DNA of 64,000 nucleotides. Origin: Oidiodendron maius Zn. Its lineage: Eukaryota > Ascomycota > Leotiomycetes > Myxotrichaceae. The DNA lies in NCBI GenBank assembly GCA_000827325.1, contig KN832886.1, forward strand, positions 625,655-689,654. The letters run 5' to 3'. Under the pieces are notes generated by a model. That model was not told the origin of the DNA, made no database searches, and saw only the letters and a program-made list of their open reading frames with translations. The position numbers and the translations under genes are program-made. Positions 2,392-19,818 of the stretch are shown here, in pieces. Each line of letters starts with the position of its first letter. Position 1 is the first letter of the stretch.

Positions 2392-3401
2392 GAATTAAGA
2401 AGAGGAGGTTGAAAGAGACAACAACGGTTGGCCAGTTTAGCTTTCCTTAATCCAGAGCTATCCTTGGATGCTTAAAGTCAAATGAACACATTTCATCTCA
2501 ATACACCATACAAATCCTGACCGGTTCGAGATCATCTCATATAGTATTAGAGCAATTTATATTCAGACATCCCGCTCAAGCACTGTGTCTTCTCTATCAC
2601 TAATTGGCAGTGTCAAAGGTTACAGGATGGAAGGATTCATCAGTATGTGTGTGGAATCGTTGTTATTGAGTTGACTAAGGTTCTAAGCTGTATATAACCA
2701 CACAATATATGGTGCGCCGCCACTCGCTACGTTACGGATATTCAGATCACCCGTTCGGATCCGAATGCCCGAATATCCTTCACAGGCAGCTAGCTAACTA
2801 GAGCCTCTGAAAATTCGTGTTTCAAAATTCCTCACAACCTAGCTCCTGACGCTGATTTGGTGCTTACTGGTGAACTACGTTAACGCAGTTGATCAAAAGA
2901 TCTAAGGATATTACATGCTGCTAAATCGGAGCAGAGTTGATGACTTGATTTGCCGTTATAAGCGAGACTAGATTCCTAGCATCTCAGCCATCAGGTGCTT
3001 TTGCGGACACGTGCTCTTGTCGAAATTTGATCACAAGGCCGGATTGTAAACGGCCATGTGGCCATATTCTAGATTTTCGAGATTGATAATTTTTGCTGAC
3101 ACAACGTCCCAGCCGATGCTAGTCTCATACTACGCTGAGGCAAGTCTTATGGTGTCGCGTGAGGAATCTCCTCCCCTGTCTCTGGAATGTCACTCGGCTC
3201 ATAAAGTTGGTTAAGTCCATAACGCCCAACTATTCCTATTCGGAACAGCCGTCCTTCCCTCGCGTCATTATCGAGTAACCATATATTCTGCGATGTAATT
3301 CACCATACAGAAACTATGATCATCTCGCCTATTCTTTTGTTACATGCTGACTTCTTTATCACAAGAAGTCCGATTTTCTCCTTGATTGTCACGTAGCTAT
3401 T
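2392..3401. other. Intergenic, no recognised gene
   Basis: About 1 kb of AT-rich sequence without convincing coding potential. It contains a CACGTG E-box-like palindrome near 3008, 390 bp upstream of the arrestin-like gene. That is noteworthy only because a PHO4-like bHLH gene lies nearby. Confidence 0.4.
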
Positions 3402-4928
3402 ATGACGACAGAAACGACCCCTTGTCTACGTCTCTTCCTAGATCATGCAGCTAAGAACTCGGATCGTGGAGGCCCAATAACATCCTGGGCCCCTGCCGAT
3501 AGTCTTACCGGGCATCTAGAGCTATCCGGTGCAGAATTTATGGCCATCGAGGACATTTCGATGTACTTCGAAGGTTCGAACGCACGGAGTATGGATTGTA
3601 TCAAACTAAGCTTCTATAGGCGTGGCGCGGAATTGGATTACGGAGTGTGCTGAGTATGAACGAGACCCGAGGGTCAACAAGGCAGAGCACAAAGTACGTG
3701 GAGATGAACCTTGGGCGAGCCCTTTCCATAGAATGTCATGAAGACACAAGACTGACTAGCCAATGCAAAGTTCCTCACCCAGGCCCAGAACATAGTGCCA
3801 ACGACCGTGTCTCAAAGAGCCTTGTCTCCTGAACGATTTATCTATGAGGTCCCTTTTCACTTCGTCATCCCGAAAGCGATTGCGAGGCTCGACTCCGAGG
3901 TGCCAGAGCACTGCATGCAACTTCCGCCCTCTCTTGAGCTCGGAGAATCGATAACAGACGAATCTACTGGGCACATTTTTGCGCAGCCAAGCATTTCCTA
4001 CTATCTACGAGCCGACATAACGCTGAATACTGGCAGCGGTGGCAGTAGCATGACTATTGACACGTCTTTGCCAGTCATTGTCACACCGTACACCAAGGAG
4101 TTTCCACCTACAGAAACAATGGATTTCCCTGCCGAATTCAAGGAAAAGGAATCCAAAGAACTGCGGCGGCATCTCATGAGTCGTGGACTTGGGATGATGA
4201 CAGTCTCTGTACGAGAACCACCAGCCTTGAGTTACGACATCCAGTCAGTCCACGCCTCTACAGAAGTATCGGTGATGCTCGACTTCAAGTCCGAAGGCTC
4301 CAGCCAGATCTATCAGATCTTGCAAAGTCTCAACTTTGAGGTTTCCCCTCTGCTGAGGATCAAAACATTCTACTCGCTCCAGTCTTTCCCGAGTCTACCA
4401 AGTCGAAGTCTCTTGAGTCTAAAGGGTGTGATGAGAATGCGTGATGAAATTATCAAACTCGACCGCAAGAGTATTCGGGGTGTCTCCTGGAAGTGTGCAT
4501 TTCAGCTAAGTAATCAAGCGCCCTGTATATTGCCACTTCTACTCTCTGACCATCTAACCTCGCACGCTGACTGATTCAAACTTGACATAGTAGAAACACC
4601 ACCCAGGAGTGCCAGTCTGCCAGGAGGCAGATGGATTACTCATTTATCTATTCCAATCACGGTCGATACCCGTCTCCTGCCTACATTCTGCACGTCCGTC
4701 GTGGCACGCCTGTACACAACCATCCTCCGCATCAAGGTGGTCGGTGCTCGAGTAGAATCGTTCAATCTGGAAGTCCCTTTACAAGTAGTACATAGGTTTC
4801 CGGACCAGCACCAGTTCATGCAGACAGACCCCATAAGAGACGAGCAGCGTTTTCTAGCTTTTCGACGAGACTCGGAAAGCTCCTGGCTGAGCGATGAGGC
4901 GTTAGTGAGTAACTTTCGCCAGTGGTAG
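3402..4928 (+). CDS. Arrestin-like protein, copy A
   Basis: Alpha-arrestins are cytosolic adaptors that recruit ubiquitin ligases to plasma-membrane transporters. Four exons mirror copy B: 3402-3573, 3620-about 3697, 3760-4470 and 4591-4928, giving about 432 aa. Visible landmarks are GHLELS and IEDISMYFEG in exon 1 (arrestin N-like strands), FHFVIP, then LQLPPSLELGESITDESTG and AQPSISYYLRA in exon 3, and LLPTFCTSVVARLYT with SFNLEVPLQVVH in exon 4. Exon 1 has exactly the same length (172 nt) and phase as in copy B. The join of exons 2 and 3 is odd: the obvious donor GTACGT at 3694 leaves the wrong phase, and only a weak GTGGAG donor at 3698 keeps the frame. A one-base loss is therefore possible. 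No PPxY motif for ligase binding was noticed. The product ends about 60 aa shorter than copy B. Confidence 0.7.
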
Positions 4929-5314
4929 AAGAGAGATATTTCAGTTAACCTGTGCTAGGAAACTGCAAGGCAACCGCCCCATTACTATGCCTGAAATTAC
5001 GTGTATAGGAAACATTGGGAGTTTGCGGACACACGGTCTATTTATATAGTGTCCTGATCAACGGCACTCAGACGAACCTTATATTTAGCGTGGCGCTTAT
5101 ACTTTCTGCCAGAGGATACTGCCAGAGTGAATGCATGATCGTACTACTGTTTTAGGTCGCTATGCTGGAGGAAAGTAAAGCATTTCAAATAACATAAGTG
5201 CCTGCTATCTAAACGGCTTTCTTAATGACATTGAAATTGTCCTAATTGGCTGGCATAGCAAACCAGAAAACGTCGAATGAAGTGCAGAGTGCAATAAGAC
5301 TGGCGCCTTGTATC
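4929..5314. other. Convergent intergenic region
   Basis: About 390 bp between the 3' ends of arrestin-like gene A and the phosphate permease. I see no other gene. It should hold both polyadenylation regions. Confidence 0.5.
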
Positions 5315-6818
5315 TTACTTAGACAGAGCCGTGACAAGACTTGTCTCATTGTCACCAGGCTGAAGCCCATCGGCGACTACTTCATCTCCGTGATATGTAC
5401 TGGCGAGCTGTTCCAGCGAGATTCGTTTGGTTTCAGGAATGAGCAGAGTTGTAGCCACGCCGCACAGCATAAATCCACCAAAAATCTCCATCACATGGTT
5501 CAGCCACTTGCTTGTCCCTCCAATGTTTGCTAATGGCCCAAGGAGGGCCTGGGCAATAACCGCGCCCACTTTGCCTGCAGCTGCGGATATGCCGTGGGCT
5601 GTCGATCGGAACCTGGTAGGGAAGACCTCTCCGGGGACTGTAGTTGATGTTATTATTTGATGTCATGATTTACGCTGAATGAGGTAACTCACCAATGAAA
5701 GTAGTGGAGTTTGCACCAAAATTCGAAAAGAACTGGCAGAGCACATATAGTGCGAATAGCGCATGCGCAGAAAGATGATAGTAGCCAAATCCAATCACAC
5801 AAAAGAGAAGCGTGAGAATGAGAAAGCTAGCCATCTGAATGGGTTTCCGGCCAAGCGTATCGATAGTGGCCACGCTAACCCAGTACCCTGGAATATTGCC
5901 CGTCACTGATAAGATCAAGTTGCCCACAGCGACATTATAGAGGCTGTAGTAGACGTTGGTGGAGCCAGCATAGCCGATCGCACGGAGGATGGTGGAATTG
6001 TTTAGTCCCAAACCCCAGAACGCGATATCAATAAAGAACCATGACCCGGCGGTACCCAGTAGGATCTTCCCATGTCGCCATTTTCTGAAGTGGAGCCAGA
6101 ATTCTTTCCATGTAGCTTTGGGGCCTGCTGCTTGCTGTCTAGCCTTCACGATTGCGGTATTCTCTTCTCCGTAGGTGCTTTTCCTCCGTCCAGACAAGTA
6201 GGCCTCTGTGTCTGCCTTCGCCTTCTCTAGGTTAAACGAAATATCCATCGTATAACGTGGGGTCTCGGGAATCGTTAGACGGAAGTATAGAGCACAGAGT
6301 GCAGGGAGACAGCCAAAGGCCACGATGGTTCTCCACATCTTGTCAGTGGCTGACTGACACCTTGCGTCGCACTGAGCTGGGGTCTCCGCTTGGATGAGAG
6401 AGTCTTTGAACGCTACCACGCAGATAAAGAACACCATCGCGGCAGCGAAATTACCGAAGCCTTGCCTAGGTCAAACCATCAACTCGGTCATGTACAAGTG
6501 CTATATACTAGACTCACATTGCGAAGACCGAGTTCATCAACGCCCCGCGCCATTTGACAGTTGCAAATTCAGAGGTGATAACGGATGACAGAGGATGTCG
6601 CCTCCAACACCAATTCCCATGAACACCCGCCAAAAGATCAAAGGTCCCAACAGAGCAAGCGAGGGTCCGGCGCCTGTGATTGCCTGCCCAAAAGTGCCTA
6701 TGATGATAATGATCAATTCCACGCCATACATTCTTTTCCTCCCCAGCTTATCAGCAAACCATCCGAAAAGGACTTGACCAATAACTGCCCCCGCAGTCGT
6801 AGAGTCAACTAAAGCCAT
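5315..6818 (-). pseudogene. PHO84-type inorganic phosphate permease (MFS), one-base frameshift
   Basis: This is a proton-coupled phosphate symporter of the plasma membrane. Such permeases are also the entry route for arsenate. Three exons are visible: 6818-6518, 6465-5693 and 5637-5315, joined by 52- and 55-bp introns. Exon 1 shows FGWFADKLGRKR, the MFS loop motif, and GIGVGGD. Exon 2 has the long loop with LTIPETPRYT. Exon 3 has PGEVFPTRFRSTAHGISAA. Just after GGD the frame slips: HPLSSVITSEFA, as in the family, is read only one frame over, near 6594, so one C seems missing. The first membrane helix is also absent. Upstream the same frame stays open except for one TGA at 6885-6887 and contains a plausible N-terminal stretch. 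The gene is divergent from the bHLH gene. Confidence 0.8.
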
Positions 6819-7478
6819 GGAAGGGAGAGCTAAATTTCTGTTATATTTCGGGAAAGTGAAAACAGAAGATTGAGCACAGAGTGATCAAACATTGAGAGCA
6901 AAAGGGCAGTATATGTAGAACATCAGCGACTCAAAAGAAACGAACAGTGCTCCATACTGCGACCAGTATGGAGAAGGGGTTTTGACATGTGCATAATTCA
7001 GCTCTCTTCATTGGGTTGACATGATTAACTTGTCATAGGAGACAATTTGCCGTAATGGACTCTGCGTCCATTTGTTGGCCATGAATGAGTCCCTGATAGC
7101 TGCGATATTTCAGATCAGCTACAGGGCTGCGGCTGGAAGGTCACTTGTTTTTTGTTATTGGTTGCTAAGCAGCGTGGTCTAGGCTCAGTCTGCTGACGAA
7201 AGCTCCAGCTAGGAAGTCAATGCATCGCGGAGACGTAACTTCTTGCAAGAGGCACCGGCAGGGGCTAGACGGGAAGGGGATCATGTGGGCATCTTCTACA
7301 CACCAGAAGCGGTCGGGAATTTCCTTGGTACGATATAACTAATTCGTGCTCCCTGCCATAACACTTCTTAAGTCTGGGTGACAACTGACAGATTACCATG
7401 TCGTATTTATCTACATAATATATTAGCACAGTTTTGCGCTCTTTCAATCATATTTCAATCATCACCATCACCAAAGCA
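6819..7478. promoter_or_regulatory. Shared divergent promoter of phosphate permease and bHLH gene
   Basis: About 660 bp separate the divergent start regions of the PHO84-like permease and the PHO4-like regulator, a layout that suggests co-regulation. I looked for CACGTG, the PHO4 core, and did not see it here. The proximal part may instead encode the missing permease N-terminus. Confidence 0.5.
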
Positions 7479-8162
7479 ATGGATGTAAGCTCTCTTATCT
7501 CAAATTCACAAAGCGGTCATGGAGCAGCAGGACGCCAGGACAAAATGCTTGATAAGCCCTCAACAGGCAAGGTTCCAGACGTATCACTACTCAGAACAAG
7601 GAGAGGACGGCAAAAACGCCAAAAGAAGACACCCCCTTCCCAATCAGAAGAAGGTGCGAGTCCCCATTCTGAGAGAGATCTCAGCTTGCTCACCATCTAG
7701 TAAGCAGGGCCAGTCACCTATATTGAAAACCAGCCCCTCGCCTCAAAATCGAACTATCAATGCATGGTTGAAGGAGAGCATACCAGGCTTGGGCACTATC
7801 CGGATGATCTCATCCGGCAAGTCGTCTCCAAACGTGTGTCGCATAGCGTGGCAGAACGGAGCCGGAGGGAGCGTCTGAACAAAGCTCTGCAAAAATTGCT
7901 TGAAGTACCGGTAGCAGCCCAGGAAGATGGCCCTTCCAGCGGGGTCTACTGCCCTATGGACGGACAGGATCAAGATGGGCAGGATCAAGCACCTACGAGG
8001 GAAAGATTTGAGAATATGGTCGTAACTACGGGGTCAAATACCAAAGTTAAGACTGTGGAGATGGCGATTGAATATATTAACAGCCAGCAAAAGGCAGCCA
8101 GGGATATGAAAGCTAAGTTAGAAGATTGTCAGCGGTGGATGGGCAGTAACGGAGGCCGTTGA
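7479..8162 (+). CDS. bHLH transcription factor, PHO4/NUC-1/PalcA-like
   Basis: PHO4-type factors activate phosphate-starvation genes through E-boxes. Two exons are predicted, 7479-7653 and 7708-8162, with a 54-bp intron (donor GTGCGA, acceptor TAAGCAG) that removes two tandem stop codons and keeps the frame. The product is about 209 aa. The basic region SHSVAERSRRERLN has the His, Glu and Arg-Arg positions that contact E-boxes. Helix 1 is ALQKLLEVP, and after a long loop helix 2 is NTKVKTVEMAIEYINSQQK, matching the TVEMAIEYI helix of PalcA/NUC-1 proteins. A DGQDQ repeat lies in the loop. Divergent pairing with a phosphate permease supports the PHO-type assignment. The start and the intron are inferred from frame. 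Confidence 0.72.
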
Positions 8163-8533
8163 CAGGTCCTAGGTTGTTGTAGTCTTCGGCAACTGTCACG
8201 TACATATTGGAGGCTGATGATATAGAATATCCTATATTCACCGCACCCCAACCCAAACAATAGAGTACACAAGAAAATGTGATGGTCGCATGTCCTGATG
8301 TTGGAAAACGCCTGGGGTCTGCAGCACCTCCACGCACTGAATGTCACTCGGGTAGTGTTATTGGATGCTCTCTCCAGGCGGCTGGGAATGAAGCGCGGTT
8401 CAATGCCATAATCCCGGTGACCCACTTCTCCAAGCACCACCTCCCAGACGACCGACGAAGAGGGCAGAGAGGCAGCCGCTGCACCCTCACCTCCCTTCTC
8501 CTTATCACAACATAACATACAACTCACGCCGGG
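8163..8533. promoter_or_regulatory. Intergenic region between bHLH and bZIP genes
   Basis: About 370 bp hold the bHLH 3' end and the bZIP promoter. Pyrimidine-rich tracts near 8490-8510 resemble a fungal core promoter. No other gene is seen. Confidence 0.4.
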
Positions 8534-9295
8534 ATGACCACACAGGCAAGTTGGCCAACATATACCTAACCTCGTACCTAAAGGCGCTGGCTTACCGTAC
8601 CTTAGCAATCTCGTTCGGCGGCCTTGACTCGCATCCGCAATAATCAGCGTCGCTCCCGCGCTCGGCGGAAAGAATATATTGGGGAGCTCGAAGATCGCGT
8701 CCAGAGACTTGAACGCATCGGCCCACAAGCTAATGCTGAAATACAAGCTGCGGCACGTGGAGTCCTTGCAGAGAACGCGCTGCTGCGGTCCCTTCTTGGA
8801 GACCTTAGCGTTCCGATTACTGAGGTTGAGACCTATTTACATGCCACGCATGGCGGGCCCGAGAATACCTCGCCTGTCTCCGTCTGCCTACCCACGATGG
8901 CGTGTCCGCCTCACCTGGCTCCTGTGCCTAATGCTACACAGCATCTGATGGACTTGGGAACGTCGTTTCTCCATGGTGGCCCGTCCGAGACGCGACAAGG
9001 TGTTCATGCGCTACAGATCACTCCATCATGCAGCACCGGACGGTCTACTACTCCGTCACGTCCAGCCTGGGGACCAGCCTCTCAATATCCTCGTGATATG
9101 CCACCCTTTTCTCTACCTGATGAGGCACCGGTCCAGCCCCCCCGCGCCGGGGACGCGCTTGATAGCGCTGGCACTATCATGCGCTGGAACAGGGGGCGAT
9201 CTCAAAGTGTAGAGAGTGCTGCATCCTACGCTAAAGCAGCGGTGACTACTGCAGGTGTATGCAGACGTGATGCTGGTGGAGTGGGCACCCCTTGA
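8534..9295 (+). CDS. bZIP transcription factor 1
   Basis: This is a fungal bZIP regulator. The basic region LTRIRNNQRRSRARRKEYI is followed by a leucine-zipper-like helix (GELEDRVQRLE). The conserved QSRSAA lead-in begins right after a CTTAG acceptor at 8605. The only short upstream exon that fits is ATG ACC ACA CAG (8534-8545), which requires a GC donor (CAG/GCAAGT). The result is 233 aa. The rest is Pro- and Ser-rich, and the usual fungal C-terminal bZIP block is not obvious, so the 3' end could be shortened. It lies in the arsenic island; fungal arsenic genes are often governed by bZIP factors such as Yap8/Arr1, but its target is inference. Confidence 0.68.
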
Positions 9296-9782
9296 GCCGG
9301 GTTCTGCTCAGCCTTGAATTGTGGCGAGTTTCTTGCAAAATCAAAGATTGCAAGGCCCCTGTCACGTCAAGGGCTACGCAAAAGATGAGGCAAATTTACC
9401 TAACTCATAGTGGGTTAGTTGTGATAGTTTCTAAGCCTGCAGTTTGGAAAACTATGCAATTTGCGTTCTTGGAAGCGTTGTCTCCTACTCATCCACGCTG
9501 ATAGTCGTTTGAAGCGAGGGACAAGGGGAGAGGTATGATCGGCCGTTACCAAGGCAACTGAGAAATTAACTAAGGTTGCTGTGGGAATCTCTGCTGGTCT
9601 TGCTCTGCGGGATGCATTATGCTTTGACGCAAAGGAGATATTAAAGACAGAGATCTGGGTGCTTTGTTCTTTTCGACATCTAACGAAAAATTATCTTTTC
9701 AAGCTCTACTCGAGCTTCCCGATAGCCTCCACAACTGCTAGCAGCTGGTCATGATGCACTGATGTCAGGTCTGAATAACGAA
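9296..9782. other. Convergent intergenic region
   Basis: About 490 bp between the bZIP 1 stop and the arsenate reductase stop. I see no coding sequence or repeat that I can support. Confidence 0.4.
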
Positions 9783-10465
9783 TTAACTCGACTTCCATAT
9801 TGAGGCATCATAGCCGTCCGTCAGTTCCACATATTCATTTCCCGAGGCTACCCAGCCCTTGATGCCGCCCTCTAGGACGCTGCTCTCCATCGTGGTATTG
9901 TTCTGTGCCCTGATGTAGTCTGCGAACCAGCCTGCAGCGCGTGTTCCACGTCCTTTGGAGGAGCCTGGTACAAACGTTATCCTAGGAAAGTAGGAGTGGC
10001 AATTGCCCAAGCAAGGTGGGATACGTAGCTGGCAAGCAGAAAGGAAATAGGGTCAAAACCCGGGGACTCACCACAGAACCAAATCACATTCTTTATTCCC
10101 GCAGTCGAGAAGAGCGTGTATAGTGATGGGATGGTGGGATAGAGAGACTGCGCGGGGAGGTTGATCGATCCGTGAATAGTCCCGCCCTACGAAACAGACA
10201 TGGTCAGAATATGCTCCCAAGTGCAAATTTGCGCTTCGGGAAGACAAGCGCACAGCATTAAAAAGTCAGAACCTGGGCTTACCTCGTAGTCTGTCCGCCG
10301 AAGATCCACAAGAACAAAATCATTTCCTGGCAGTCGTCCGGCCTGCATCCATGACAAAACCGTCTCACAGGTGACGATGGAGGCCGCTGCAGTCGGTGCT
10401 GGGAAGGCAGCATGCCACGGCCTCTCAGAGTCGACTGGAACGGCGGGCGGTTCGCGCGATGCCAT
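9783..10465 (-). pseudogene. Arsenate reductase, Acr2/rhodanese (CDC25-like) type, frameshifted
   Basis: Acr2 enzymes reduce arsenate to arsenite with a catalytic Cys in a C-x5-R loop. Exons are 10465-10283, 10187-10072 and 9964-9783. Exon 1 starts MASREPPAVP and contains FVLVDLRRTDYE. Exon 2 starts GGTIHGSINLPAQSL. The exon 2/3 junction forms FCGSSKGRGTR, in which C-GSSKG-R is a perfect C-x5-R loop. Exon 3 continues RAAGWFADY and ends near VLEGGIKGWV, a rhodanese hallmark. In exon 2, near 10140, one extra A shifts the frame: the following IPSLYTLFSTAGIKNVIWFC is only readable one frame over. Without that base the product would be about 159 aa. Either the gene is inactivated or the assembly has an indel. 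It is divergent from the Acr3 gene. Confidence 0.8.
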
Positions 10466-11172
10466 TATTGTTAGCGATAGGTCGGGGTAAGAACTGATTC
10501 TGCTGTCGAGTAACTTTGTGTTAATCAAAGGGATTATCGATATCTCGCAGTAAGAAGTATGAAGAGCAGAGTAGCGAAAGGTGGACGACAATCACACGAA
10601 GGAAGATACTGACCGTAGTGCTGAGGAGCAATTGAATGAATGAATGGATGACAGCAGCCTAGGAGAGAAGAGTCTCATGACACTTCCACCGCCCGGGGTT
10701 TTATAGCGTCAGTTCTCGGCCTCTGCATGAGAAATCAAATCATGTTTGGAAATAGGAAGCTGGTTGGACTGGACTGCGCACAAGGCCGGGCGGCTGCAAG
10801 GCTGGAGATGTCACGTAGGGGGCAACAGGCGGGAATGTCACTGCCTTCACGCTATTGGTCAGATGGGTGACGATATGGGTTTTCGGGGGCGGTCCGCCTT
10901 TCTCCCTCCAGGAGCCAGCAAAAAGGTCGCCATATAACAGTATGCAAAGATTCCGAAAGGTAATTATCAATCAAGCCTGTTGTGCAACAATTTTCTTCTT
11001 TTCTCTTGACTTCTCTTCCCTTCCACCTAACAGCATACCGGGACGCATATAAACTCCGAACCGCTGTGCAGGACCCATCCATAGTTAGTGAGTGCAGTGC
11101 AACTCGAGCTTCGTCTTTCCAATACAAGAGAAACACAACAAACCGTTCAATCCTCTCATCATCTCTCTTAGA
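10466..11172. promoter_or_regulatory. Divergent promoter of arsenate reductase and Acr3
   Basis: About 700 bp between two divergent arsenic genes, so a likely shared control region. It contains ATGTCACGTA near 10808 and a strong CT-rich tract at 10990-11030 upstream of the Acr3 start. No further gene is seen. Confidence 0.55.
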
Positions 11173-12465
11173 ATGTCCCAAGGAAGGATCCTCAAACCCG
11201 AGGCATCTCCAGATCTCCAACCAGACAAGGAGCGCCTGGCTTCAGATCCAACTACGCCTCAGTCTCTAGATCATGACCTCGAGTTACAGGCAACAGGCAA
11301 CGCAGCCGACGATTCCAATGAAACCAAAGTGTCTGCATTTAAGAGTCTAGGCATCTTAGATCGATTCCTGGCTGTATGGATATTCTTGGCCATGGCCATT
11401 GGTATCATACTTGGGAATTTCGTTCCGAACACAGGCCCAGCTCTCCAAGTTCGTCGGTGTGTCAGTTCCTATAGGTAAGACACCGACGTTATCTGGAATA
11501 AAGTTCAGCAGCTAACCCTCTTTCTTGCTTATAGCTGTTGGCCTACTTGTCATGATGTACCCTATACTATGCAAGGTTAAATATGAGACTCTACACCACG
11601 TCTTTCGAGAGCGGAAGATATGGATACAGATTGGCTTCAGTATCGTTGCCAATTGGATCGTCGCTCCCCTAGTCATGGCGCGTACCACCACTACCCATTC
11701 TCGTTTTACTATACTGACTCTTCTTAGCTCGGCTTGGCTTGGGCCTTCCTTCCGGACAAACCTGGCCTGAGAGACGGGCTGATTCTTGTCGGTATTGCGA
11801 GGTGTATCGCCATGGTCTTGATATGGACTGGCCTTGCGGGTGGGGACAGCGAATACTGTGCTATCCTCGTCGCTGTCAACTCGATGCTGCAGATGGTTCT
11901 CTTTGCGCCTCTGGCAATCCTATTCCTCCGGGTAATTAGCGGCGCCGATGCGGAAGTGTCCTATGAGATCGTCGCCAAATCCGTTGGCGTGTTTCTGGGG
12001 ATCCCTCTGGGTGCCGCGATCGTTACCCGCTTCGCGCTCCGGACGCTGGTTAACCCAAACTGGTACGACCGAGTATTCTTGAAGTTCGCCGCTCCGTGGT
12101 TGCTCATCGGCCTTCTTTTCACTATCTTAGTGCTCTTTGCCTCTCAAGGCCACCAGGTTGTACGTCAGATCGTCTCAGTTGTACGTGTGGCGGCACCCCT
12201 AGTTGTCTACTTTGCCGTAATCTTCTTCATCACGCTGCTTGTAACACACAAGCTGGGATTCGGGTATAAACTCGCGACTACACAAAGCTTTACAGCCGCC
12301 AGTAACAATTTCGAGCTGGCTATTGCTGTTGCTGTTGCAACGTATGGCGCTAATAGCGACCAGGCCCTGGCATCTACAGTAGGGCCACTTATTGAAGTGC
12401 CCGTCTTGCTCGGTCTTGTGTATGTAGTAAAGACGATTGGACGTAGGAGGGGGTGGAAGGACTAA
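11173..12465 (+). pseudogene. Acr3-type arsenite efflux permease, frameshifted in exon 1
   Basis: Acr3 exports arsenite across the plasma or vacuolar membrane. Exons are 11173-11474, 11535-11677 and 11728-12465, about 393 aa. The order of motifs matches the family: LGILDRFLAVWIFLAMAIG, FVPNTGPALQ, FVGVSVPI then AVGLLVMMYPILCKV, NWIVAPLVM, LGLAWAFLPDKPGLRDGLI with GIARCIAMVL (the Cys implicated in transport), ASNNFELAIAVAV and GPLIEVPVLL. At about 11446-11450 one base too many separates ALQ from FVGVSVPI. The rest is intact. The second intron (11678-11727) keeps the frame only with a GC donor (ATG/GCGCGT). Convergent with ArsH. Confidence 0.85.
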
Positions 12466-12790
12466 TAACTAGAAGGTGTGGAGTTTGGATCGCTGTGAAG
12501 GGCAAAGGGTAGTTCATAGGTTGCTACATAAGACATGTACTTGGCGTGCTAGGCGTGGTATTAGATTTTGTGGCCGAGAAGAGAACATATGAGTACTAGG
12601 ATTTGTTAATAGTCACTTTATACCTGTATCTAAGTAGATAATGGCTTCGAGATCTCGCTAAAATAAGTTACAGAGCACTGTGTTAATGTTTGGAGTTGAT
12701 GCACTATAGGAAAGCGTAAGCCTTGCAGCGGCAGATATCACTGTCTATTTACTCTAATATGTGGCAAAATCAAAATCTTTCGTGCCAGAT
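12466..12790. other. Convergent 3' region of Acr3 and ArsH
   Basis: About 325 AT-rich bases between two convergent stops. It should contain both polyadenylation sites. No gene is seen. Confidence 0.5.
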
Positions 12791-13708
12791 CTACACAGCC
12801 TCTGCTGCAGTAACCCTCTTAGCTTCCTTCTCTCTCTTATCCTTTCTCTCACTGTATCGATCGCCAAACAGCCCTAGGTGAGGCCGCATTAGAATAGTAT
12901 ACTTGACAAACTCCTCCATGCAATCCACTAATCTCTCGCGGTTTCCACTCGGTAACAAGCGCGCCTTTCCACTCCCATCCCCACCTTCATCCTCGAATTG
13001 CTTGTAAGCCATAGGCAAACTGCTCTGGTTGGGGATAGTAAACATCCTCATCCACCGCCCCAGGATCCTAAGGCTGTTCAACGCATTGAAGCTCTGACTG
13101 CCCCCATTCACCTGTATTATCGACAAGGTCCGGCCTTGTGTGGGACGGACCGAGCCAGTCGAGAGCGGGATCCAGTCGATCTGGTTCTTGAAGACGGCGG
13201 TCAGATTGCCGTGCTGCTCTGGCGAGCACCAGACATGCCCATCTGACCAGAGCGACAGGGAGCGCAGCTCTTGGACCGATGGGTGTGATGCGTCGACCGA
13301 GTCGCGGATCGGGAGTGAGGATGGGTCAAAAATCCGCACGTCGCACCCGAGGCGGTGCAGGATGCGGGCAGCTTCGAAGGCCATGAGTTTGGAATAGGAC
13401 CTTTTGGTGCTGGATGTAAGCGACGCCCACCTAGTAGAAGAGGGAGATGCTTACCGTTTGCGCAAACTCCCGTACAAGACAAGAACCCTCAACCGTGTTT
13501 TGGTCCTGGCCAGATCCGCTTCGGCCATATTGATTGCAGTTTCCAGCTCTAGCCGCGAGATCCAGTCAGTATCCTCCATCGTTGCGTCTAGAAGGAAAGG
13601 TCGATACTTCGTCCTAATCTCAGGATCATCTTCTCCTTCTGAGATTGGTAGGTGAGGACATTGCGAGAGACTTCGATACTCTCCCGACGGGTGAGTGAGA
13701 GAGCCCAT
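12791..13708 (-). CDS. arsH: ArsH, NADPH-dependent FMN reductase (organoarsenical oxidase)
   Basis: ArsH is a flavodoxin-like NADPH:FMN oxidoreductase that oxidises trivalent methyl- and aromatic arsenicals. Two exons, 13708-13455 and 13400-12791, are joined by a 54-bp intron in phase 2, giving 287 aa with no break. Exon 1 begins MGSLTHPSGEYRSLSQC and has LVLYGSLRKRS, the FMN phosphate loop, at its end. Exon 2 has WCSPEQHGNLTAVFKNQIDW, the ArsH signature, and a charged Lys/Glu-rich tail. An in-frame ATG 111 bp upstream (13819) would extend the protein by 37 residues. I prefer 13708 because ArsH proteins start near this stretch. It is one of the few unbroken members of the island. Confidence 0.9.
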
Positions 13709-14032
13709 TCGATGGAGAGGCTTGGTTGCTACGACTGCTGCTCGCAAGAGGCGATGTTTGGGAAGAAGTGAGCTCCTCATGGGGCGAGACGCGATATAAG
13801 GATACTTTGGGGGAAACAACCATTTTCGAACATTTCATACTGGGACGGCTCACTGAATTCTTGATAGGGAGAATGTCGCTGGTGCTTATCGATTGGTGGG
13901 GTAGGCTCGCGATGCACGGGTCCAAAGTCGCCACTGCGCCTCCGAAAGAAAATCCTTGATGCCGACTATGAACAAATGGCGTAGGCGACACATTTTTACA
14001 GAGATCTTCCAGGCTGGTGAACAGGACTGGGC
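13709..14032. promoter_or_regulatory. ArsH upstream region
   Basis: About 320 bp between the arrestin B stop and the ArsH start, both genes on the minus strand. It must hold the ArsH promoter. Nothing else is recognised. Confidence 0.45.
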
Positions 14033-15778
14033 TTAACTGTAAGCAAGTCTGTCAGTTTCGTCATTGACACAGACCTGCCCTACGGCACTGGAACAAAGAT
14101 AGTATCGCATAGACCACTGGTAGAAAGGTAATCCCATACCGACACACCACAGCCGGAGTGCCTTTCGACATCTATACTTCGCGTTCGTTACGGGTAATAG
14201 CGCGGTGGATCTCCAGACTCCTTTCTTTCTACTTAGCTGACCCACTTCAATCACGGCGGTGAGGTATCTTACCAAGTCAGCTCTAAACCAGGACGCCTCT
14301 GGGGTTCGCTGAGGCTCCACAGAGGAGTCTTGCACACGCGCCGCCTCGGGTAATCGAGCCCCCAGAGAGTGTATCACCTGTAGCGGGACTTCAAGGTCGA
14401 AAGATTCCTGGCGTACTCCTGTAACCCTGACCCGGACCATCAAGCTGTAAAGGCGTGCAACCAACGAGCTGCAGAAGGTAGGGAGGAGGCGCAGATCGAT
14501 CTCGATCGGGATGGTCCAATTCGAGGTCCATCTACCATTCGGTACAGGAGTGTTTAATGTAAGCATTTTGCTGTTCTCTGTGTCTCTGTCTATCGATGCT
14601 CGACAAGAATAATCTCTTTGGCCAGGAAGATTTGGGGCACTAGTAGTGGCCGTATCCTGCAGATCGTACCGGTACCCCATCGAGCGTCTGACACATACCA
14701 AGTCCCAAGTTTTAGGAAGCTATCGTGGAGCCGTACCTCATTGCCGCTATCTAGAAGGGATTGGCTAGGGAGCATTGGGAAGGAGTTTACGGAATAGAAC
14801 GTCTTGGCTCTTAGAAGGGGGCACACAGTGAAGCTCAGACCTTGAAGGCTCTTCTGTGCATCGACCAAGCTCGTCGACTCGAATTCAAGCTTCATTACAG
14901 CCATAGTACTGCTACTATCAGACCGACTTCCAATGACGAGTGGCGGCGGCTCTTGCATCGAGAATTTTAACGGTCCCAGGGTACTCCCTAGTGGAAACCG
15001 CCGTAGTACCTTGGTATCGCTTTCCTTGAATTCAAAGGGGAAGTCGCTCGTTTCGGTGGGAGGGAGCTCTTCTGTAAGTGGCACAATAACCACAGGTAGG
15101 GATGTCTCCAGAGATACAGCGCTGCCGTCTGATCTCATATTGAGCTTCACAGAAGCGCGTATGTTGTACGCGATTCTCGGCTGGGCAAATCTCTTTCCCG
15201 TCAACCTATCAATAAACAAATCACCCAGCTCGAGTGATGGAGGCAGCTGTAAGCATTGCTCGGGAGATCCTGATTCTGGGCTGGCCACCAGCCTGGAGAT
15301 GACAAAATGAAAGGGTGCTTCGAGAACGACGTGTCCAGGATCTGGGCCGTCTTGCATCATGTCTGATAGTAGGATGTCGTGTGCCTGACTGAGGAACTTA
15401 AGAGCCAACTAGTTAGCCTATCTTGGCCGGGATCAAGAGAGAGCAGTTGAAGCAGCTCACCGCTCGTATGGGCATCTAAATCACTTACTTTGCGTTCGCC
15501 CGTCAGGATCCTACGATTCGGGACTGGTCCTTCCGCTATCCAGATCCTTGAAACGCCTATAAGGTCTCAGCAAGAATTGGTGCTACTTCGACTATCGATA
15601 TCTAACCTTCAAAGTAAATAGTGATCCTTTCGATAGTGAGATGTCGCGCATTCGACAGCTCCAGGTGGCCATGCAGGTTGTCTCCAGGATACCATACGGC
15701 ACCTAGCTTCTCTGGATCTTGATTCTTGTCTGCATAACTAAGAATCACACGTACGTGAGGGGCCTGATCTGATTCCAT
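14033..15778 (-). CDS. Arrestin-like protein, copy B
   Basis: This is a paralogue of the gene at 3402-4928. Four exons are predicted: 15778-15607, 15556-15489, 15408-14699 and 14570-14033, with intron phases 1, 0 and 2, giving 495 aa without interruption. Exon 1 has GDNLHGHLELSN and IERITIYFEG. Exon 3 has FHFVISR, CLQLPPSLELGDLFIDRLTG and FAQPRIAYNIRASVKL. Exon 4 has LLPTFCSSLVARLYS and SFDLEVPLQVIHSLG. These are the two beta-sandwich halves of an arrestin fold. Such adaptors direct ubiquitination and endocytosis of permeases. It sits between ArsH and bZIP 2, inside the arsenic island, so a role in turnover of the phosphate or arsenite permease is a reasonable inference but not shown by sequence. 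The last 60 codons lack a counterpart in copy A. Confidence 0.78.
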
Positions 15779-16191
15779 AATTGTCAGGTAAGCAAATTTA
15801 AAGTAGTTTAAACCAGGCTGGCCGACATCACAGCACAAAGATTAGAGGCTGGGAGAAGCTAAGGGATGAGGGCATCACCTATTTCTATCTGGATACGCAA
15901 AGGTTGAGACTGAGCTTCAGGGGCTTTGGACGCGCCGCATAAGGGAGCAACCGAGGCCAATAGAGTAAATCGAGTGACATTCCGATCACGCGCAAGGCTG
16001 AGTTCCAGGCGGGTTCCAGGCGGGGTTGCCGCATCGGATCCTATGGAAATGCGCCGTGGAAGGCCCATAGCGTGCGGCGAAACGACACACGGAGAGCACT
16101 TTGAACTCCAACTGTTCGTGGTCCTGAATATACCAACATCCAAAAGACCTTCTATTTTAGCGTCCTCTTTCTTCTTCCTCCTCGGCTAATA
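15779..16191. promoter_or_regulatory. Region upstream of arrestin B
   Basis: About 410 bp between the bZIP 2 stop and the arrestin B start. A 94-codon ORF at 16143-15859 (-) beginning MDVGIFRTTN has no recognisable domain, and I do not support it as a gene. Confidence 0.35.
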
Positions 16192-17253
16192 TTAGGTTGC
16201 TTGTGCTTCACTAATAACCGCCAGAAGGCTGAACAGCAGGTCTGTCTTAACCCGGCATCCCTCCCCAGCATTAGGAGGCTTGCGAAATCCCGTCCAGAGC
16301 CAGGTTGCTATGTCTTTCTGGTGCATCCCCTTGAAGTTTTGCCGCTCGATAAGGAGGTACGCCTCGGCACAAAGCATCGTCGATTCATTATCGTTCGTGT
16401 GTGTGTAGTAAGCGGGTATCGGTGACTGGGGGGTGTATCCCGAAACAGAGGGCGAGTTCCATACATCAAAATCGTAGTTTTGTCCTGTAAGGTCGTCAGG
16501 CTGTAAATCGCGTCTGCTCGAGCAACAGGAGTCCGCCGCTAAGGGGGTTGAATCCAGAGTAGCCGCTGACAACCAAGATCTGGTGCCTCCGACGACCCGG
16601 TAGTTCGCTATCTCCAGGCCAACGTCTGGCACATTGCGCAAGCAAGATGGACATCTCGCTCCGCCACCAGATGATCCAGATGCTGCGGCTATTGGTGTTC
16701 CCATAATATGGTTAGCGGGCTGAAGTACGGGCACAAGCTGTCGGAGGGCCTCAGCTGTGGTAACGTTGTCAGCGCCATCAGTATTGTTATACCCGGCATA
16801 GGAAGTGGTGGCATCGACCAGTTCCGGGCCGGCTTGCTCGGGGGCCAGGAGCTGAAATAGAGATTGGTTGGAAGGCGTCACGGTGTCTCGTTCCATAGCG
16901 TCCGCAAGTGGACCTAATGCTTGAGAGTCTATGTCTTTGGGGCTGGCCATGGGTGCAGGCGGTGTGCCGTCAGTAAACTCCAACCGTCCTAGAAACGAGG
17001 TAGATGCGTCTTGCTTCCGGTACCGCGCCAACTCCGCCTGCAGCGCGTCGACCTGCTCTTCCAGGGTCGTGGTACGCCGCTCTGCATGACCGAGCTTCAG
17101 TTCTAGTGTCGCGATATACTCTCTTCGGTGGGCACGATGGCGACGCTGGTTATTACGAACCCGCTCCAGGGTATGCTGCGCCGTGACCCTTTTACTGCCA
17201 GTCGGTCGGAATTGCCCACGTTCGGTGGCACGGGAATGTAAATTGGACGCCAT
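16192..17253 (-). CDS. bZIP transcription factor 2
   Basis: Single-exon gene of 353 aa. The basic region is ERVRNNQRRHRAHRREYI (about residues 30-47), followed by a zipper with LELKLGHAE and LEEQVDALQAELARY. The middle is Ser/Thr-rich with two Cys pairs (CPSC and CCSS). The C-terminus has the conserved fungal bZIP tail: LCAEAYLLIERQNFKG, IATWLWTGFRKP and EGCRVKTDLLFSLL. It is related to but clearly distinct from bZIP 1. It is transcribed divergently from ArsM over a short promoter with a long direct repeat, so control of ArsM is a good hypothesis. The Cys residues could sense metalloids, as in Yap8-type factors, but this is inference. Confidence 0.88.
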   Translation of the reverse strand: MASNLHSRATERGQFRPTGSKRVTAQHTLERVRNNQRRHRAHRREYIATLELKLGHAERRTTTLEEQVDALQAELARYRKQDASTSFLGRLEFTDGTPPAPMASPKDIDSQALGPLADAMERDTVTPSNQSLFQLLAPEQAGPELVDATTSYAGYNNTDGADNVTTAEALRQLVPVLQPANHIMGTPIAAASGSSGGGARCPSCLRNVPDVGLEIANYRVVGGTRSWLSAATLDSTPLAADSCCSSRRDLQPDDLTGQNYDFDVWNSPSVSGYTPQSPIPAYYTHTNDNESTMLCAEAYLLIERQNFKGMHQKDIATWLWTGFRKPPNAGEGCRVKTDLLFSLLAVISEAQAT

Positions 17254-17679
17254 GGGGGACGAGTATGTGTGGCTATCATCGATCTGTCACTGTTCAGAGT
17301 CGAGTTATTTATAACATCTGGAGCAACGGGTTGAGGGACGCAGCTAGTCCTCTTGCTCCCTCATAACCCCTCACTTTGATGACACCAGTGACATATCGAC
17401 TTGGTTACATAAGCAAGTGCAGAGTGGCGCGCATCCTCGATTGGACCAAGCTTCCTCTATTAGCGACATTTCATAGCAGATAACACACAATTCGCGACAT
17501 CTTGATGACATATCGGAGGCGACTTGGTTACATACCACTCACTACGAAAATGTATATGAATCGGCAGTTGAGCGAGGCAACATCAAACTCTCAACTGGCA
17601 GGACTTAACTAAGGGACTCATTATTCTACCTGTGAAGGCCCTTCTTCTTTGCCGGACTTATATGATAACGTTTCACAAC
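17254..17679. promoter_or_regulatory. Divergent promoter of bZIP 2 and ArsM
   Basis: About 425 bp between the two starts, containing the split direct repeat listed separately at 17389-17534. No gene is seen. Confidence 0.6.
17389..17534. repeat. Split direct repeat, candidate regulator-binding sites
   Basis: TGACATATCG followed by ACTTGGTTACATA occurs at 17389-17411 with no gap and again at 17506-17534 with six extra bases (GAGGCG) between the halves. The two copies, 117 bp apart in a divergent promoter, look like paired operator sites for an island regulator. That function is inference. Confidence 0.65.
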
Positions 17680-18810
17680 ATGGAGTCCAAAGAGATTTAT
17701 GACCAGGTCAACAAGCGCTATGGCTCGATCGATAAGAGCTCCACTGGTCAATACGAACAGACAGTTGCTAAGGCCTTTGGTTATACAGAGGAAGAACTTG
17801 CAGCGATCCCAGAGGGTGCGAATCTTGGGCTGAGCTGCGGCAATCCTCTCGCACTAGCTAAGCTAAGAAATGCAAGCATAACAACTTCTACGCTATATTG
17901 TTTGTGCTGATTGAAGCAGGGTGAAACCGTTATTGACTTTGGGTCCGGTGCTGGCTTCGATGTCTTTGCAGCCGCAAAAATGGTTGGCCCATCTGGCAAG
18001 GCACTCGGGGTTGATATGAATGAGGCAAGCTAGAGTGTAATCGGTATAAGAATTCAGACGTCACGCTAACGATATACGATAGAACATGATTAAAAAGGCT
18101 AATGCTAACAAAGCGAAATCCAACACTAAGAATTTGGAGTTTATAGAAGGGGCCATCACTGCCGTCCCCCTTCCGGACAGTATAGCCGACTGCATTATTA
18201 GTAACTGCGTTATCAACCTTGTTCCTGTATCAGAGAAGCAACTTGCGTTCAATGAGATGTACCGACTACTCAAGCCTGGTGGGAGAGTTGCAGTTAGTGA
18301 TATCCTTGCTCGGAAGGAGTTGACAGAAGACATGAAGAAGAATATCGCCTTATATGTTGGATGTATATCTGGAGCAAGCCAGGTCAGCTAGTATGAAGTA
18401 TATCTTAAGAAAGCTGGCTTTAGAGGTGAGCCTAATCCCATTTATAGCAGCTTGACTAACCACTAACTGGTATGTAATAGACGTCCTGATTGTAGATACT
18501 AAGAACGATTTAAATGTATACATGACCGCAGCAGAGGACGGGACGTCATGCTGTGGATCAGTCACAGAGAAGCAATGCTGTATGCCGGAGCAAAAGGGGA
18601 CCTGTTGCCAATCTGGGCTGTCTACATGCAGTTGCGAGGAAAATACTTCGATGGCAAGCGAGGCTCAAAATTTGGCTGCAGCGCTGGGAATAGTGGATTT
18701 TAACGAGTGGGCTGGTACGAAGATATCTAATCCGGTACAAGATAGGCCTATGCTAACAGTACCCAGGATCCTTCCAAGTCTATGCGGTAAAGTCTCTTGG
18801 TGAGAACTAA
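17680..18810 (+). pseudogene. Arsenite S-adenosylmethionine methyltransferase (ArsM/AS3MT), one nonsense codon
   Basis: ArsM methylates trivalent arsenic using SAM and thiols. Exons are 17680-17871, 17920-18024, 18083-18425, 18481-18714 and 18767-18810, 305 sense codons when the single stop is ignored. Motifs include ANLGLSCGNP (arsenic-binding Cys), [13 protein letters not shown] (SAM site), NCVINLVP (second Cys), LKPGGRVAVSDI, GCISGASQVS (third Cys), a CCG/CC-rich tail typical of fungal ArsM, and the final NEWAGSFQVYAVKS spliced across the last intron. TAG at 18389-18391 replaces the residue before YEVYLKKAGF, which would cut the C-terminal third. Introns 1 and 2 both need GC donors (AAT/GCAAGC and GAG/GCAAGC). 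An in-frame ATG at 17662 is an alternative start. Confidence 0.88.
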
Positions 18811-18898
18811 TTCTGTAGAGGGGTTGTGTTGGATTGAGATATGTTAGAGTAGAGGGCTTTACTCTGGAATATTTGTCTTCACAAGATTCGTAGTCTCC

Positions 18899-19501
18899 TT
18901 GGCTACTGTCATGGTGGTCAAGAGCCTACTCAAGTTTCCATCCCGAGGAGTTTCCCTCTTTCAAATCTTAAACTTTGGTGGCGGGCCTGTTGTAATTCCA
19001 CTCTTTCGCGAGTATACTGTAGCTGAAGGATGGGTCTCTCCACGGGACTTTTCGCTTGAGCTGGCTCTAATTCAGTCATTCCCTGGCCCCAATTTCAACT
19101 TCGCTGTATACCTTGGCTCACTCGCGACAGCTCAATCTTCTCTTCCATCCCTAGGAGGCGCAGTCATCGGATTCTTAGGAATATTTGCTCCAGGTATTAT
19201 TATCGTGACAGAGTAACAGGCCTGTGGAAGATTTTGCGACCGCACCGCTAGCTTCTATCTATTTTACGTGGGGTAAATGCTAGAACGTGAGCTTAGTGTT
19301 TACTGCGGTATACAAGTTATGACAGATTGGGTTTGTGGATGCAGATACTCAAAGCGGGAGTCCTCTGGGACTAGATCCGTGATGCTTAACAATAGCAGCC
19401 ACGAGTTTTATTGGTGGGCTTGGTTTGGTTTGAGTGCACCATTTGCAATTGTGCTTGGTGGCGTCATGGGAATGGTTTGGCACGCGGTTGTGAAGACCTA
19501 G
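18899..19501 (+). pseudogene. Chromate ion transporter, C-terminal CHR half only, decayed
   Basis: CHR proteins export chromate and usually have two homologous halves. Here only the second half is visible: FGGGPVVIPLFREYTVAEGW, VSPRDF, QSFPGPNFNFAVYLG and FLGIFAPGIIIVT in one frame to a TAA at 19214. Further pieces follow in other frames: GLWKILRPHR, LVFTAVYKL, IGFVDADTQSGSPLGLDP, TSFIGG and finally LSAPFAIVLGGVMGMVWHAV. Several stops sit where Trp is expected (TGG to TGA or TAG), a RIP-like change. The N-terminal half is absent between ArsM and this relic. It forms the right edge of the metalloid island. Confidence 0.75.
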
Positions 19502-19818
19502 CTCCTAGACTCATGAGTTTCAGCGTCACCAAAGTATATAAAATGATGCAATCGAGCGAAAAATAACTTACAACACCATTATTTCTTCCATTTCAGATTC
19601 ATCAGAGGGGGATTTCCTGGGAGGGGAGCTTTTGCATCAAGGAAGGGTTAGGTTAGTGATATGTATATAGTTAATATATCTTAGTAAGTATTTATTCTAT
19701 TGAAATTAAAAGAGAAGACTATAAACAATATCTGAAGTAGAGCTAGCTATCTCTCTAAACACTAAGTTATATGGGGTATTAGCTTCGGTGCCAACACTTT
19801 TCTCTTACTACTCTTCCG
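19502..19818. other. Convergent intergenic region
   Basis: About 315 AT-rich bases between the chromate transporter relic and the chitinase stop. Nothing recognised. Confidence 0.4.

What the first reader, a model, noticed from the sequence alone, without database searches (positions are those of the whole stretch)
3402..19501. Arsenic island fused with a phosphate-uptake and phosphate-regulator pair
The sequence shows Acr2, Acr3, ArsH and ArsM together with a PHO84-type permease and a divergent PHO4/NUC-1-like bHLH gene, two bZIP regulators and half a chromate transporter. Arsenate competes with phosphate at PHO84-type permeases, so co-locating a dedicated phosphate permease and its regulator with detoxification genes would let a cell change phosphate uptake when it meets arsenate. 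Fungal ars clusters with Acr3/ArsC/ArsH/ArsM are known. I am not aware of a described one carrying the PHO pair and arrestins, but I could not search.
Basis: partly seen in the sequence, partly recalled or inferred. Interest (0 to 1): 0.9.

Follow-up and report, generated by a model that had tools for sequence, protein, structure and literature searches.

The report
Split arsenic-resistance island with phosphate genes
In the metal-tolerant root fungus Oidiodendron maius, arsenic-resistance genes sit beside relics of a phosphate-uptake pair and two arrestin-like genes, and an old second copy elsewhere on the same contig seems to hold working versions of core genes that are broken here, which makes the old question of how such fungi take up phosphate but shut out arsenate easier to test.

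Summary
The gene list is right, the reading only partly. The window is Oidiodendron maius Zn. Acr2, ACR3, ArsH, ArsM, two bZIP-like genes, a PHO84-type permease, a divergent short NUC-1/PHO4-like bHLH and two arrestin-like genes lie at 3402-18803. But as assembled the permease is broken (first membrane segment missing, frameshift), ACR3 has an 8-nt frameshifting gap, ArsM an in-frame stop, and ChrA is a fragment. A second copy lies 460 kb away on the same contig, with remnants of the same permease and bHLH in the same places, so the pair was in the island before an old duplication (dS about 1 for ACR3 and most of ArsM). The copies decayed complementarily: intact island Acr2 and ArsH only here, intact ACR3 and ArsM only there. 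All five ATGTCACT sites of the window lie in five island promoters, arr1 and arr2 among them; GAATGTCACT occurs 113 times genome-wide, four times in this island. The phosphate E-box is not enriched. Best reading: one arsenic regulon split over two loci, with arrestin-like genes and a fossil phosphate arm. Linkage in other fungi could not be tested.

The parts
3402..4960 (+). arr1, arrestin-like gene (433 codons open over four exons, 3' end uncertain)
   Evidence: spliced frame without stops; 44% to arr2; no Pfam hit
5315..6884 (-). PHO84-type phosphate:H+ symporter, broken (first membrane segment missing, 1-nt frameshift)
   Evidence: Sugar_tr, TIGR00887 534 bits under cut-off 610.3, PDB phosphate transporters, gaps against copy B
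7764..8162 (+). short bHLH, NUC-1/PHO4-like; two in-phase stops lie upstream at 7698-7703, so the true start is not settled
   Evidence: PF00010; 7 of 25 candidates match at 56-69%; open from 7764
8534..9295 (+). bZIP1-like regulator (GC-AG intron 8546-8605)
   Evidence: bZIP_1 below cut-off; open 233 codons
9783..10465 (-). Acr2-type arsenate reductase, intact (159 aa)
   Evidence: copy B broken
11173..12465 (+). ACR3 arsenite efflux gene, frameshifted by an 8-nt gap near 11447
12791..13795 (-). ArsH, intact (start uncertain)
   Evidence: TIGR02690, PDB ArsH E 2e-71, spliced frame
14036..15778 (-). arr2, arrestin-like gene (3' end uncertain)
   Evidence: first three exons open; Arrestin_C 0.0017, Bul1_C 0.091, both below cut-off
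16192..17253 (-). bZIP2-like regulator, 353 aa, found in this genome only in the two islands
17680..18803 (+). ArsM arsenite methyltransferase, interrupted by an in-frame stop at 18389-18391 (201 codons before it)
18848..19498 (+). chromate transporter fragment, broken; its belonging to the island is not shown
   Evidence: 55% to a copy near B and 57% to one on C1
3187..3194 (+). ATGTCACT element upstream of arr1
8341..8348 (+). ATGTCACT element upstream of bZIP1
10835..10842 (+). ATGTCACT element between Acr2 and ACR3
15973..15980 (-). ATGTCACT element upstream of arr2
17387..17394 (-). ATGTCACT element between bZIP2 and ArsM

Best explanation
This is one of two old copies of an arsenic-resistance island on the same contig of Oidiodendron maius Zn. 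The ancestral island held a PHO84-type permease, short bHLH, bZIP1, Acr2, ACR3, ArsH, bZIP2 and ArsM (shown by both copies); arr1 and arr2 are found only in this copy. Since the duplication each copy has lost different genes: this copy keeps Acr2, ArsH, both bZIP-like genes, both arrestin-like genes and probably the bHLH; the other keeps ACR3, ArsM and bZIP2 (its bZIP1 frame is open but short). As assembled, each of the four core functions has an intact island gene at one locus only. A shared promoter element, ATGTCACT, marks arr1, bZIP1, Acr2/ACR3, arr2 and bZIP2/ArsM here and bZIP1, Acr2/ACR3 and ArsM in the other copy (shown). Inferred: an island bZIP binds it and switches on both loci together under arsenic; Acr2 (here) makes arsenite, ACR3 (there) exports it, ArsM (there) methylates it, ArsH (here) handles organoarsenicals; the arrestin-like proteins help remove arsenate-carrying phosphate permeases from the membrane or tune ACR3 turnover. 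The permease is the fossil of a former phosphate arm.
For: Second copy collinear over the permease N-part, the PHO84/bHLH promoter, bHLH, bZIP1, Acr2, ACR3, ArsH and bZIP2, with ArsM inverted. Genome-wide, ACR3 (family SBF) and ArsH were found only at the two loci, bZIP2 likewise. ACR3-A lacks 8 nt against B; 78 of 78 homologues that cover the stretch (of 119 examined, from 120 listed) have 13-15 residues where the published A model has 3. ArsM-B reads open to its end, ArsM-A does not. Acr2-B and ArsH-B are broken in several places. dN/dS A against B 0.056 for ACR3 exon 3, 0.022 and 0.056 for ArsM exons 1 and 3, with dS 0.96-1.25, so both were long under selection. Element: 5 of 5 ATGTCACT sites of the window in the island, each in a different promoter; 4 in the B island, 0 in the other 20.8 kb of that stretch; it is in 5 of 7 promoters, reached by 0 of 1000 shuffles; 4 of 6 genomic RAATGTCACTCGR sites lie in the two islands; 4 of 113 GAATGTCACT sites within 16.5 kb, reached by 33 of 20000 random placements.
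Against: Lesions rest on one assembly; no reads were seen. The count of ATGTCACT in the window is not itself unusual (5 seen, 2.39 expected, 6 of 100 shuffles reach 5): only the placement is. Draws from other window DNA reach 5 of 7 promoters in 10 of 1000, and for 9-mers (4 of 7 seen) 28 of 1000 reach it. Two 3'-3' gaps were left out of the promoter set beforehand. The 13-base pattern was written from the island sites, so one search is partly circular; GAATGTCACT is itself commoner in the genome than its reversed control (113 against 47). ArsM exon 4 has dN/dS 0.94, and dS varies from 0.40 to 1.25 between genes. The arrestin and bZIP labels are below Pfam cut-offs; no PPxY motif was found in the arrestin exons scanned; the fold prediction failed (pLDDT 40). 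A weaker Acr2-like match lies on C12 (41%) and an ArsM-like one on C13 (39%), so the split need not be absolute. No expression data.
Confidence: 0.58

Rival explanations
1. First reader's module: the island still works as a phosphate/arsenate switch, with its own permease driven by the neighbouring bHLH; the apparent lesions are assembly errors or are bypassed by splicing.
For: The published gene models (P0008, P0128) bridge the lesions with introns; the bHLH basic region and helices are conserved in the five of seven relatives that were aligned; Pho4 is needed for arsenate and arsenite tolerance in Candida albicans (PMC4324303, abstract and passages).
Against: The permease lacks its first membrane segment as well as having the frameshift, and is a remnant in copy B; E-box not enriched; the bridging ACR3 model drops residues present in all 78 covered homologues.
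Confidence: 0.12
2. Relict cargo: two decaying copies of an ordinary fungal ars cluster, perhaps old Starship cargo, in which PHO84, bHLH and arrestin-like genes are passengers with no joint function.
For: Many lesions in both copies; duplicated ars clusters in one genome are known from Aspergillus fumigatus (PMC3289889, passages), and ars clusters ride on Starships there (PMC12153272, passages).
Against: ACR3 and most of ArsM stayed under strong selection; complementary rather than parallel loss of the core genes; shared promoter element on arrestin-like and core genes; none of 22 DUF3435 captain matches is on this contig and no repeats of 24 bases or more were reported in the first 24 kb; in the ACR3 tree both copies sit among Leotiomycetes (class of the neighbours recalled).
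Confidence: 0.25
3. The phosphate arm was lost because losing it helped: without the extra permease less arsenate enters, so the decay is adaptive in a metal-tolerant strain.
For: Yeast lacking Pho84 tolerates more arsenate (PMC11050377, passages); permease broken in both copies.
Against: Other PHO84-type genes remain; no population data.
Confidence: 0.2

Closest known systems
Duplicated ars clusters of Aspergillus fumigatus (AFUA_1G16030-16120 and AFUA_5G14930-15030), and the ars clusters carried by Starships Neb h1, Neb h2 and Osiris h2
   Same: Divergent arsenate reductase/ArsB(ACR3-type) pair, ArsM (Cyt19), ArsH, two copies in one genome (PMC3289889, passages; Starships: PMC12153272, passages)
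   Different: No phosphate permease, bHLH or arrestin is named there, but that table lists duplicated pairs only, several as hypothetical; that the two AFUA clusters are the Neb h1/h2 ones is my inference; here no captain was found on the contig
Bacterial arsenic islands with pst/phn/pho genes (PMC3834237)
   Same: Arsenic genes linked to a second, island-borne set of phosphate-uptake genes apart from the distant set (abstract and passages)
   Different: Bacterial uptake operons and aio arsenite oxidase; not homologous; here the permease is dead
Saccharomyces ARR1-ARR2-ARR3 cluster
   Same: bZIP regulator, Cdc25-type arsenate reductase and Acr3 side by side (recalled; the start of the abstract of PMC9266342 names the three genes)
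   Different: No ArsH, ArsM, phosphate or arrestin genes there (recalled); the bZIP-like genes here do not look like Yap8 by eye, and no TGATTN6AATCA site is in the window
Yeast PHO pathway (Pho4, Pho84) and Art3/Art4-driven turnover of Acr3
   Same: bHLH plus high-affinity permease; arrestins act on Acr3, Rsp5 touches Pho84 (PMC11050377, passages)
   Different: Short bHLH without a long N-part; genes unlinked in yeast (recalled); no E-box enrichment here

Membership tests
Fungal ars cluster (Acr2, ACR3, ArsH, ArsM) | ACR3 equivalog | tested here: met
   TIGR00832: published models of A 364.7 and B 397.6 bits, cut-off 282.8; A is frameshifted in the DNA
Fungal ars cluster (Acr2, ACR3, ArsH, ArsM) | ArsH | tested here: met
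   TIGR02690 294.6 bits, cut-off 292.25; PDB ArsH
Fungal ars cluster (Acr2, ACR3, ArsH, ArsM) | Arsenite methyltransferase | tested here: met
   One ArsM exon matches solved arsenic methyltransferases and arsenite methyltransferase models, below their full-length cut-offs
Fungal ars cluster (Acr2, ACR3, ArsH, ArsM) | Arsenate reductase of the Acr2/Cdc25 type | tested here: inconclusive
   Weak match to YGR203W (E 0.0006) and CDC25A; CX5R seen by eye; no Pfam or NCBIfam hit for its last exon
PHO84-type phosphate:H+ symporter | Full-length equivalog score | tested here: not met
   Published model 534 bits against cut-off 610.3, starting at profile position 63
Pho4/NUC-1 phosphate regulators | bHLH domain | tested here: met
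   PF00010 34.9 bits, cut-off 20.7; 37% to a gene on C4, perhaps the genuine one
Pho4/NUC-1 phosphate regulators | E-box CACGTG in target promoters of the locus | tested here: not met
   2 in 2400-19800 (one 394 bases upstream of arr1, one inside bZIP1), 2.9 expected; none in the PHO84/bHLH promoter
Alpha-arrestin / Bul adaptors | Arrestin domains | tested here: inconclusive
   arr2 Arrestin_C E 0.0017 under cut-off, arr1 nothing; fold prediction of one exon pLDDT 40
Alpha-arrestin / Bul adaptors | PPxY ubiquitin-ligase motif | tested here: not met
   None in the frames scanned; one LPFY in an uncertain 3' frame of arr2
Starship cargo | DUF3435 captain on the element | tested here: not met
   22 matches in the genome, none on C17

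The most novel reading that the evidence does not exclude
A eukaryotic arsenic regulon that edits phosphate uptake: under arsenate the island bZIPs switch on, with the detoxification genes, arrestin-like adaptors that pull arsenate-carrying phosphate permeases off the membrane, while an island-borne permease of a separate clade and its short bHLH once supplied phosphate instead; a eukaryotic counterpart of the bacterial arsenic islands that carry pst genes, now running in trans from two half-decayed loci.
Probability: 0.22. Interest if true: 0.8.

Novelty: new variant of a known kind. Interest (0 to 1): 0.57.

Why it matters
Ericoid mycorrhizal fungi are described as particularly resistant to arsenate (PMC9709444, passages), yet they must take up phosphate, which enters by the same kind of permease. 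A regulon that joins arsenic detoxification with genes that could change phosphate permeases would give a concrete handle on that. The complementary decay of two copies is also a clear natural case of one pathway divided between two loci, and it warns that automatic gene models can hide pseudogenes by inventing introns.

Tried and rejected
Pho4 E-box control of the island: tested, no enrichment. Starship origin: no captain on the contig, no repeats of 24 bases or more reported in the first 24 kb. Linkage of bHLH, permease and ACR3 in metagenome contigs by comparing the contig lengths printed: by eye no length recurred; inconclusive, since one longest contig is shown per protein and 120 hits per list. 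Viral contigs for the bHLH family: 131 pattern matches, none confirmed. Papers on a fungal ars cluster with PHO84, bHLH or arrestin: the listings showed none that I recognised as describing one; I saw titles and abstract starts, and passages of nine papers (PMC11623301, PMC12153272, PMC3289889, PMC5909057, PMC3021540, PMC4324303, PMC11050377, PMC9709444, PMC6428775) plus outline and passages of PMC3834237; most subscription papers are not held. The ChrA fragment was dropped from the island: copies near B and on C1 are about equally similar. The two other genomic RAATGTCACTCGR sites (C15, C16) showed no evident arsenic gene by eye in the frames printed within 3 kb. Yap8-type TGATTN6AATCA: none in the window.

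Dropped rows: the ACR3 tree used 44 of 120 listed hits plus A and B; the permease tree 44 of 120 plus A and four own-genome rows; both are quick searches. One search used the 100 of 113 sites that one search listed for the neighbour count, and 113 for the random placements. The promoter test used 7 of 9 gaps, the two 3'-3' gaps being left out.
Full report
Identity. The window is C17:625,655-689,654 of a 45.9-Mb genome in 58 contigs. Its permease and ACR3 frames match proteins OIDMADRAFT_45081 and OIDMADRAFT_106311 of Oidiodendron maius Zn at 100%; the species is a leotiomycete of the Myxotrichaceae. That O. maius Zn is a metal-tolerant ericoid mycorrhizal fungus appears in cited titles seen.

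What is there. From left to right: arr1 (+), PHO84-type permease (-), short bHLH (+), bZIP1 (+), Acr2 (-), ACR3 (+), ArsH (-), arr2 (-), bZIP2 (-), ArsM (+), a chromate-transporter fragment (+), then a frame that looks like a GH18 chitinase (by eye). Family evidence is, spliced models. Acr2, ArsH, bZIP1, bZIP2, arr1 and arr2 read open over the exons modelled. The bZIP labels are below Pfam cut-offs. The bHLH reads open from the methionine at 7764; upstream in the same phase are two stops at 7698-7703, so its true start is not settled.

Lesions. The permease: the blast pieces of copies A and B leave 50 nt in A against 334 nt in B, where B still encodes a first-membrane-segment-like stretch; a 1-nt gap against B lies at the conserved GGD motif; the published model starts late and scores under the family cut-off. 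ACR3: an 8-nt gap against B; the published model jumps it and so has 3 residues where 78 of 78 covered homologues (of 119 examined) have 13-15. ArsM: in-frame stop at 18389-18391 after 201 codons. ChrA: part of one domain, then stops.

Second copy. A bHLH search of the genome gave three places: the window, C4 (37%; perhaps the genuine NUC-1/PHO4) and C17:165,365. The last lies in a second island: permease remnant, shared PHO84/bHLH promoter DNA, bHLH (basic region broken), bZIP1 (open but short frame), Acr2 (broken in several places), ACR3 (open), ArsH (remnant in several frames), bZIP2 (open), ArsM (open, inverted). No arr match was found in that 30-kb stretch; genome-wide the only matches to the main arr2 exon are itself, arr1 at 44%, and two at 29% and 25%. 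ACR3 and ArsH were found at these two loci only, and so was bZIP2; weaker Acr2-like and ArsM-like matches exist on C12 and C13.

Age and selection. ACR3 of A and B group with one metagenome protein (SH-aLRT 95), next to Hyaloscypha, Rutstroemia and Botrytis sequences (quick search; that these are Leotiomycetes is recalled). dS is 1.10 for ACR3 exon 3 and 0.96 and 1.25 for ArsM exons 1 and 3, with dN/dS 0.02-0.06; bZIP2 0.37 (dS 0.82), bZIP1 0.51 (dS 0.49), bHLH 0.46 (dS 0.97), ArsM exon 4 0.94 (dS 0.40). So the duplication is old, the core enzymes were long constrained in both copies, and the breaks in ACR3-A and ArsM-A look late (inference), those of B's Acr2, ArsH, permease and bHLH older.

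Permease clade. In a quick tree of 49 rows the island permease lies in a clade of 25 (SH-aLRT 99) apart from the genome's other PHO84-type genes on C21, C17:582,9xx and C1. 785 proteins matched at 1e-30; 120 were listed.

Shared promoter element. In seven promoter-bearing gaps of A (two 3'-3' gaps left out) the best shared 8-mer, ATGTCACT, is in five; 0 of 1000 dinucleotide shuffles and 10 of 1000 draws of other window DNA reach five. For 9-mers four of seven is seen, reached by 1 and 28 of 1000. All five sites of the 64-kb window are in the island, though five sites in 64 kb is not in itself rare (6 of 100 shuffles). B has four in 9.2 kb and none in the other 20.8 kb of the stretch fetched there; three other stretches of 10 kb held two between them. 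GAATGTCACT occurs 113 times in the genome (reversed control 47), four of them in this island; 33 of 20000 random placements give four within 16.5 kb anywhere. RAATGTCACTCGR occurs six times (reversed control nine), four of them in the islands: arr1, bZIP1 and arr2 here, Acr2/ACR3 in B; the pattern was written from these sites. The PHO84/bHLH promoter has no exact site. CACGTG shows no enrichment: two in the island against 2.9 expected, one of them 394 bases upstream of arr1 and the other inside bZIP1.

Reading. I take this as one arsenic regulon spread over two loci, with arrestin-like genes inside it and a dead phosphate permease. Shown: gene content, second copy, lesions as assembled, element placement. 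Inferred: co-induction, bZIP binding, arrestin function. Yeast gives reasons to link the parts: Acr3 is degraded through arrestins Art3 and Art4, Pho84 is the main arsenate entry and interacts with Rsp5, and pho84 mutants tolerate arsenate (PMC11050377, passages); Pho4 is needed for arsenic tolerance in Candida albicans (PMC4324303, abstract and passages). In bacteria, arsenic islands carry extra phosphate-uptake operons: among 21 islands, 10 pst1 and 6 phn1 operons are reported (PMC3834237, abstract and passages).

Limits. No fungal genomes other than the window's own could be searched, so recurrence in other species is untested; two copies in one genome show that the pair is old in this lineage, not that it arose twice. 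All lesions rest on one assembly.

Noticed in passing
window 8546-8605, 17872-17919, 18025-18082: Three GC-AG introns in bZIP1 and ArsM; the first ArsM one is GC-AG in copy B too, the second GT-AG there. ACR3 intron 2 also seems to start with GC in A and GT in B.
   Followed up: partly
C21:549164 (locus L034): One of the 113 GAATGTCACT sites lies roughly 0.8 kb upstream of a PHO84-type gene on C21, which would fit phosphate uptake being in the arsenic regulon; could be chance.
   Followed up: partly
published models P0008 and P0128: Automatic gene models bridge the lesions with introns, so the broken permease and ACR3 are listed as ordinary proteins.
   Followed up: yes
genome G000, contigs C44, C37, C11, C29, C1, C20, C25, C28, C9, C3, C6: 22 DUF3435 (Starship captain) matches, many with stops inside; the longest open frame among them is on C29.
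   Followed up: no
window 19822-20916 (-): Long open frame that looks like a GH18 chitinase, next to the island (by eye).
   Followed up: no
window 17377-17411 and 17503-17534: Near-repeat in the bZIP2/ArsM promoter (TGATGACA followed by CTTGGTTACATA), a possible second element.
   Followed up: no
window 7700-7707: A GT...AG stretch only eight bases long sits where three relatives of the bHLH (P0001, P0002, P0007) read straight through; perhaps the stump of a shortened intron.
   Followed up: no
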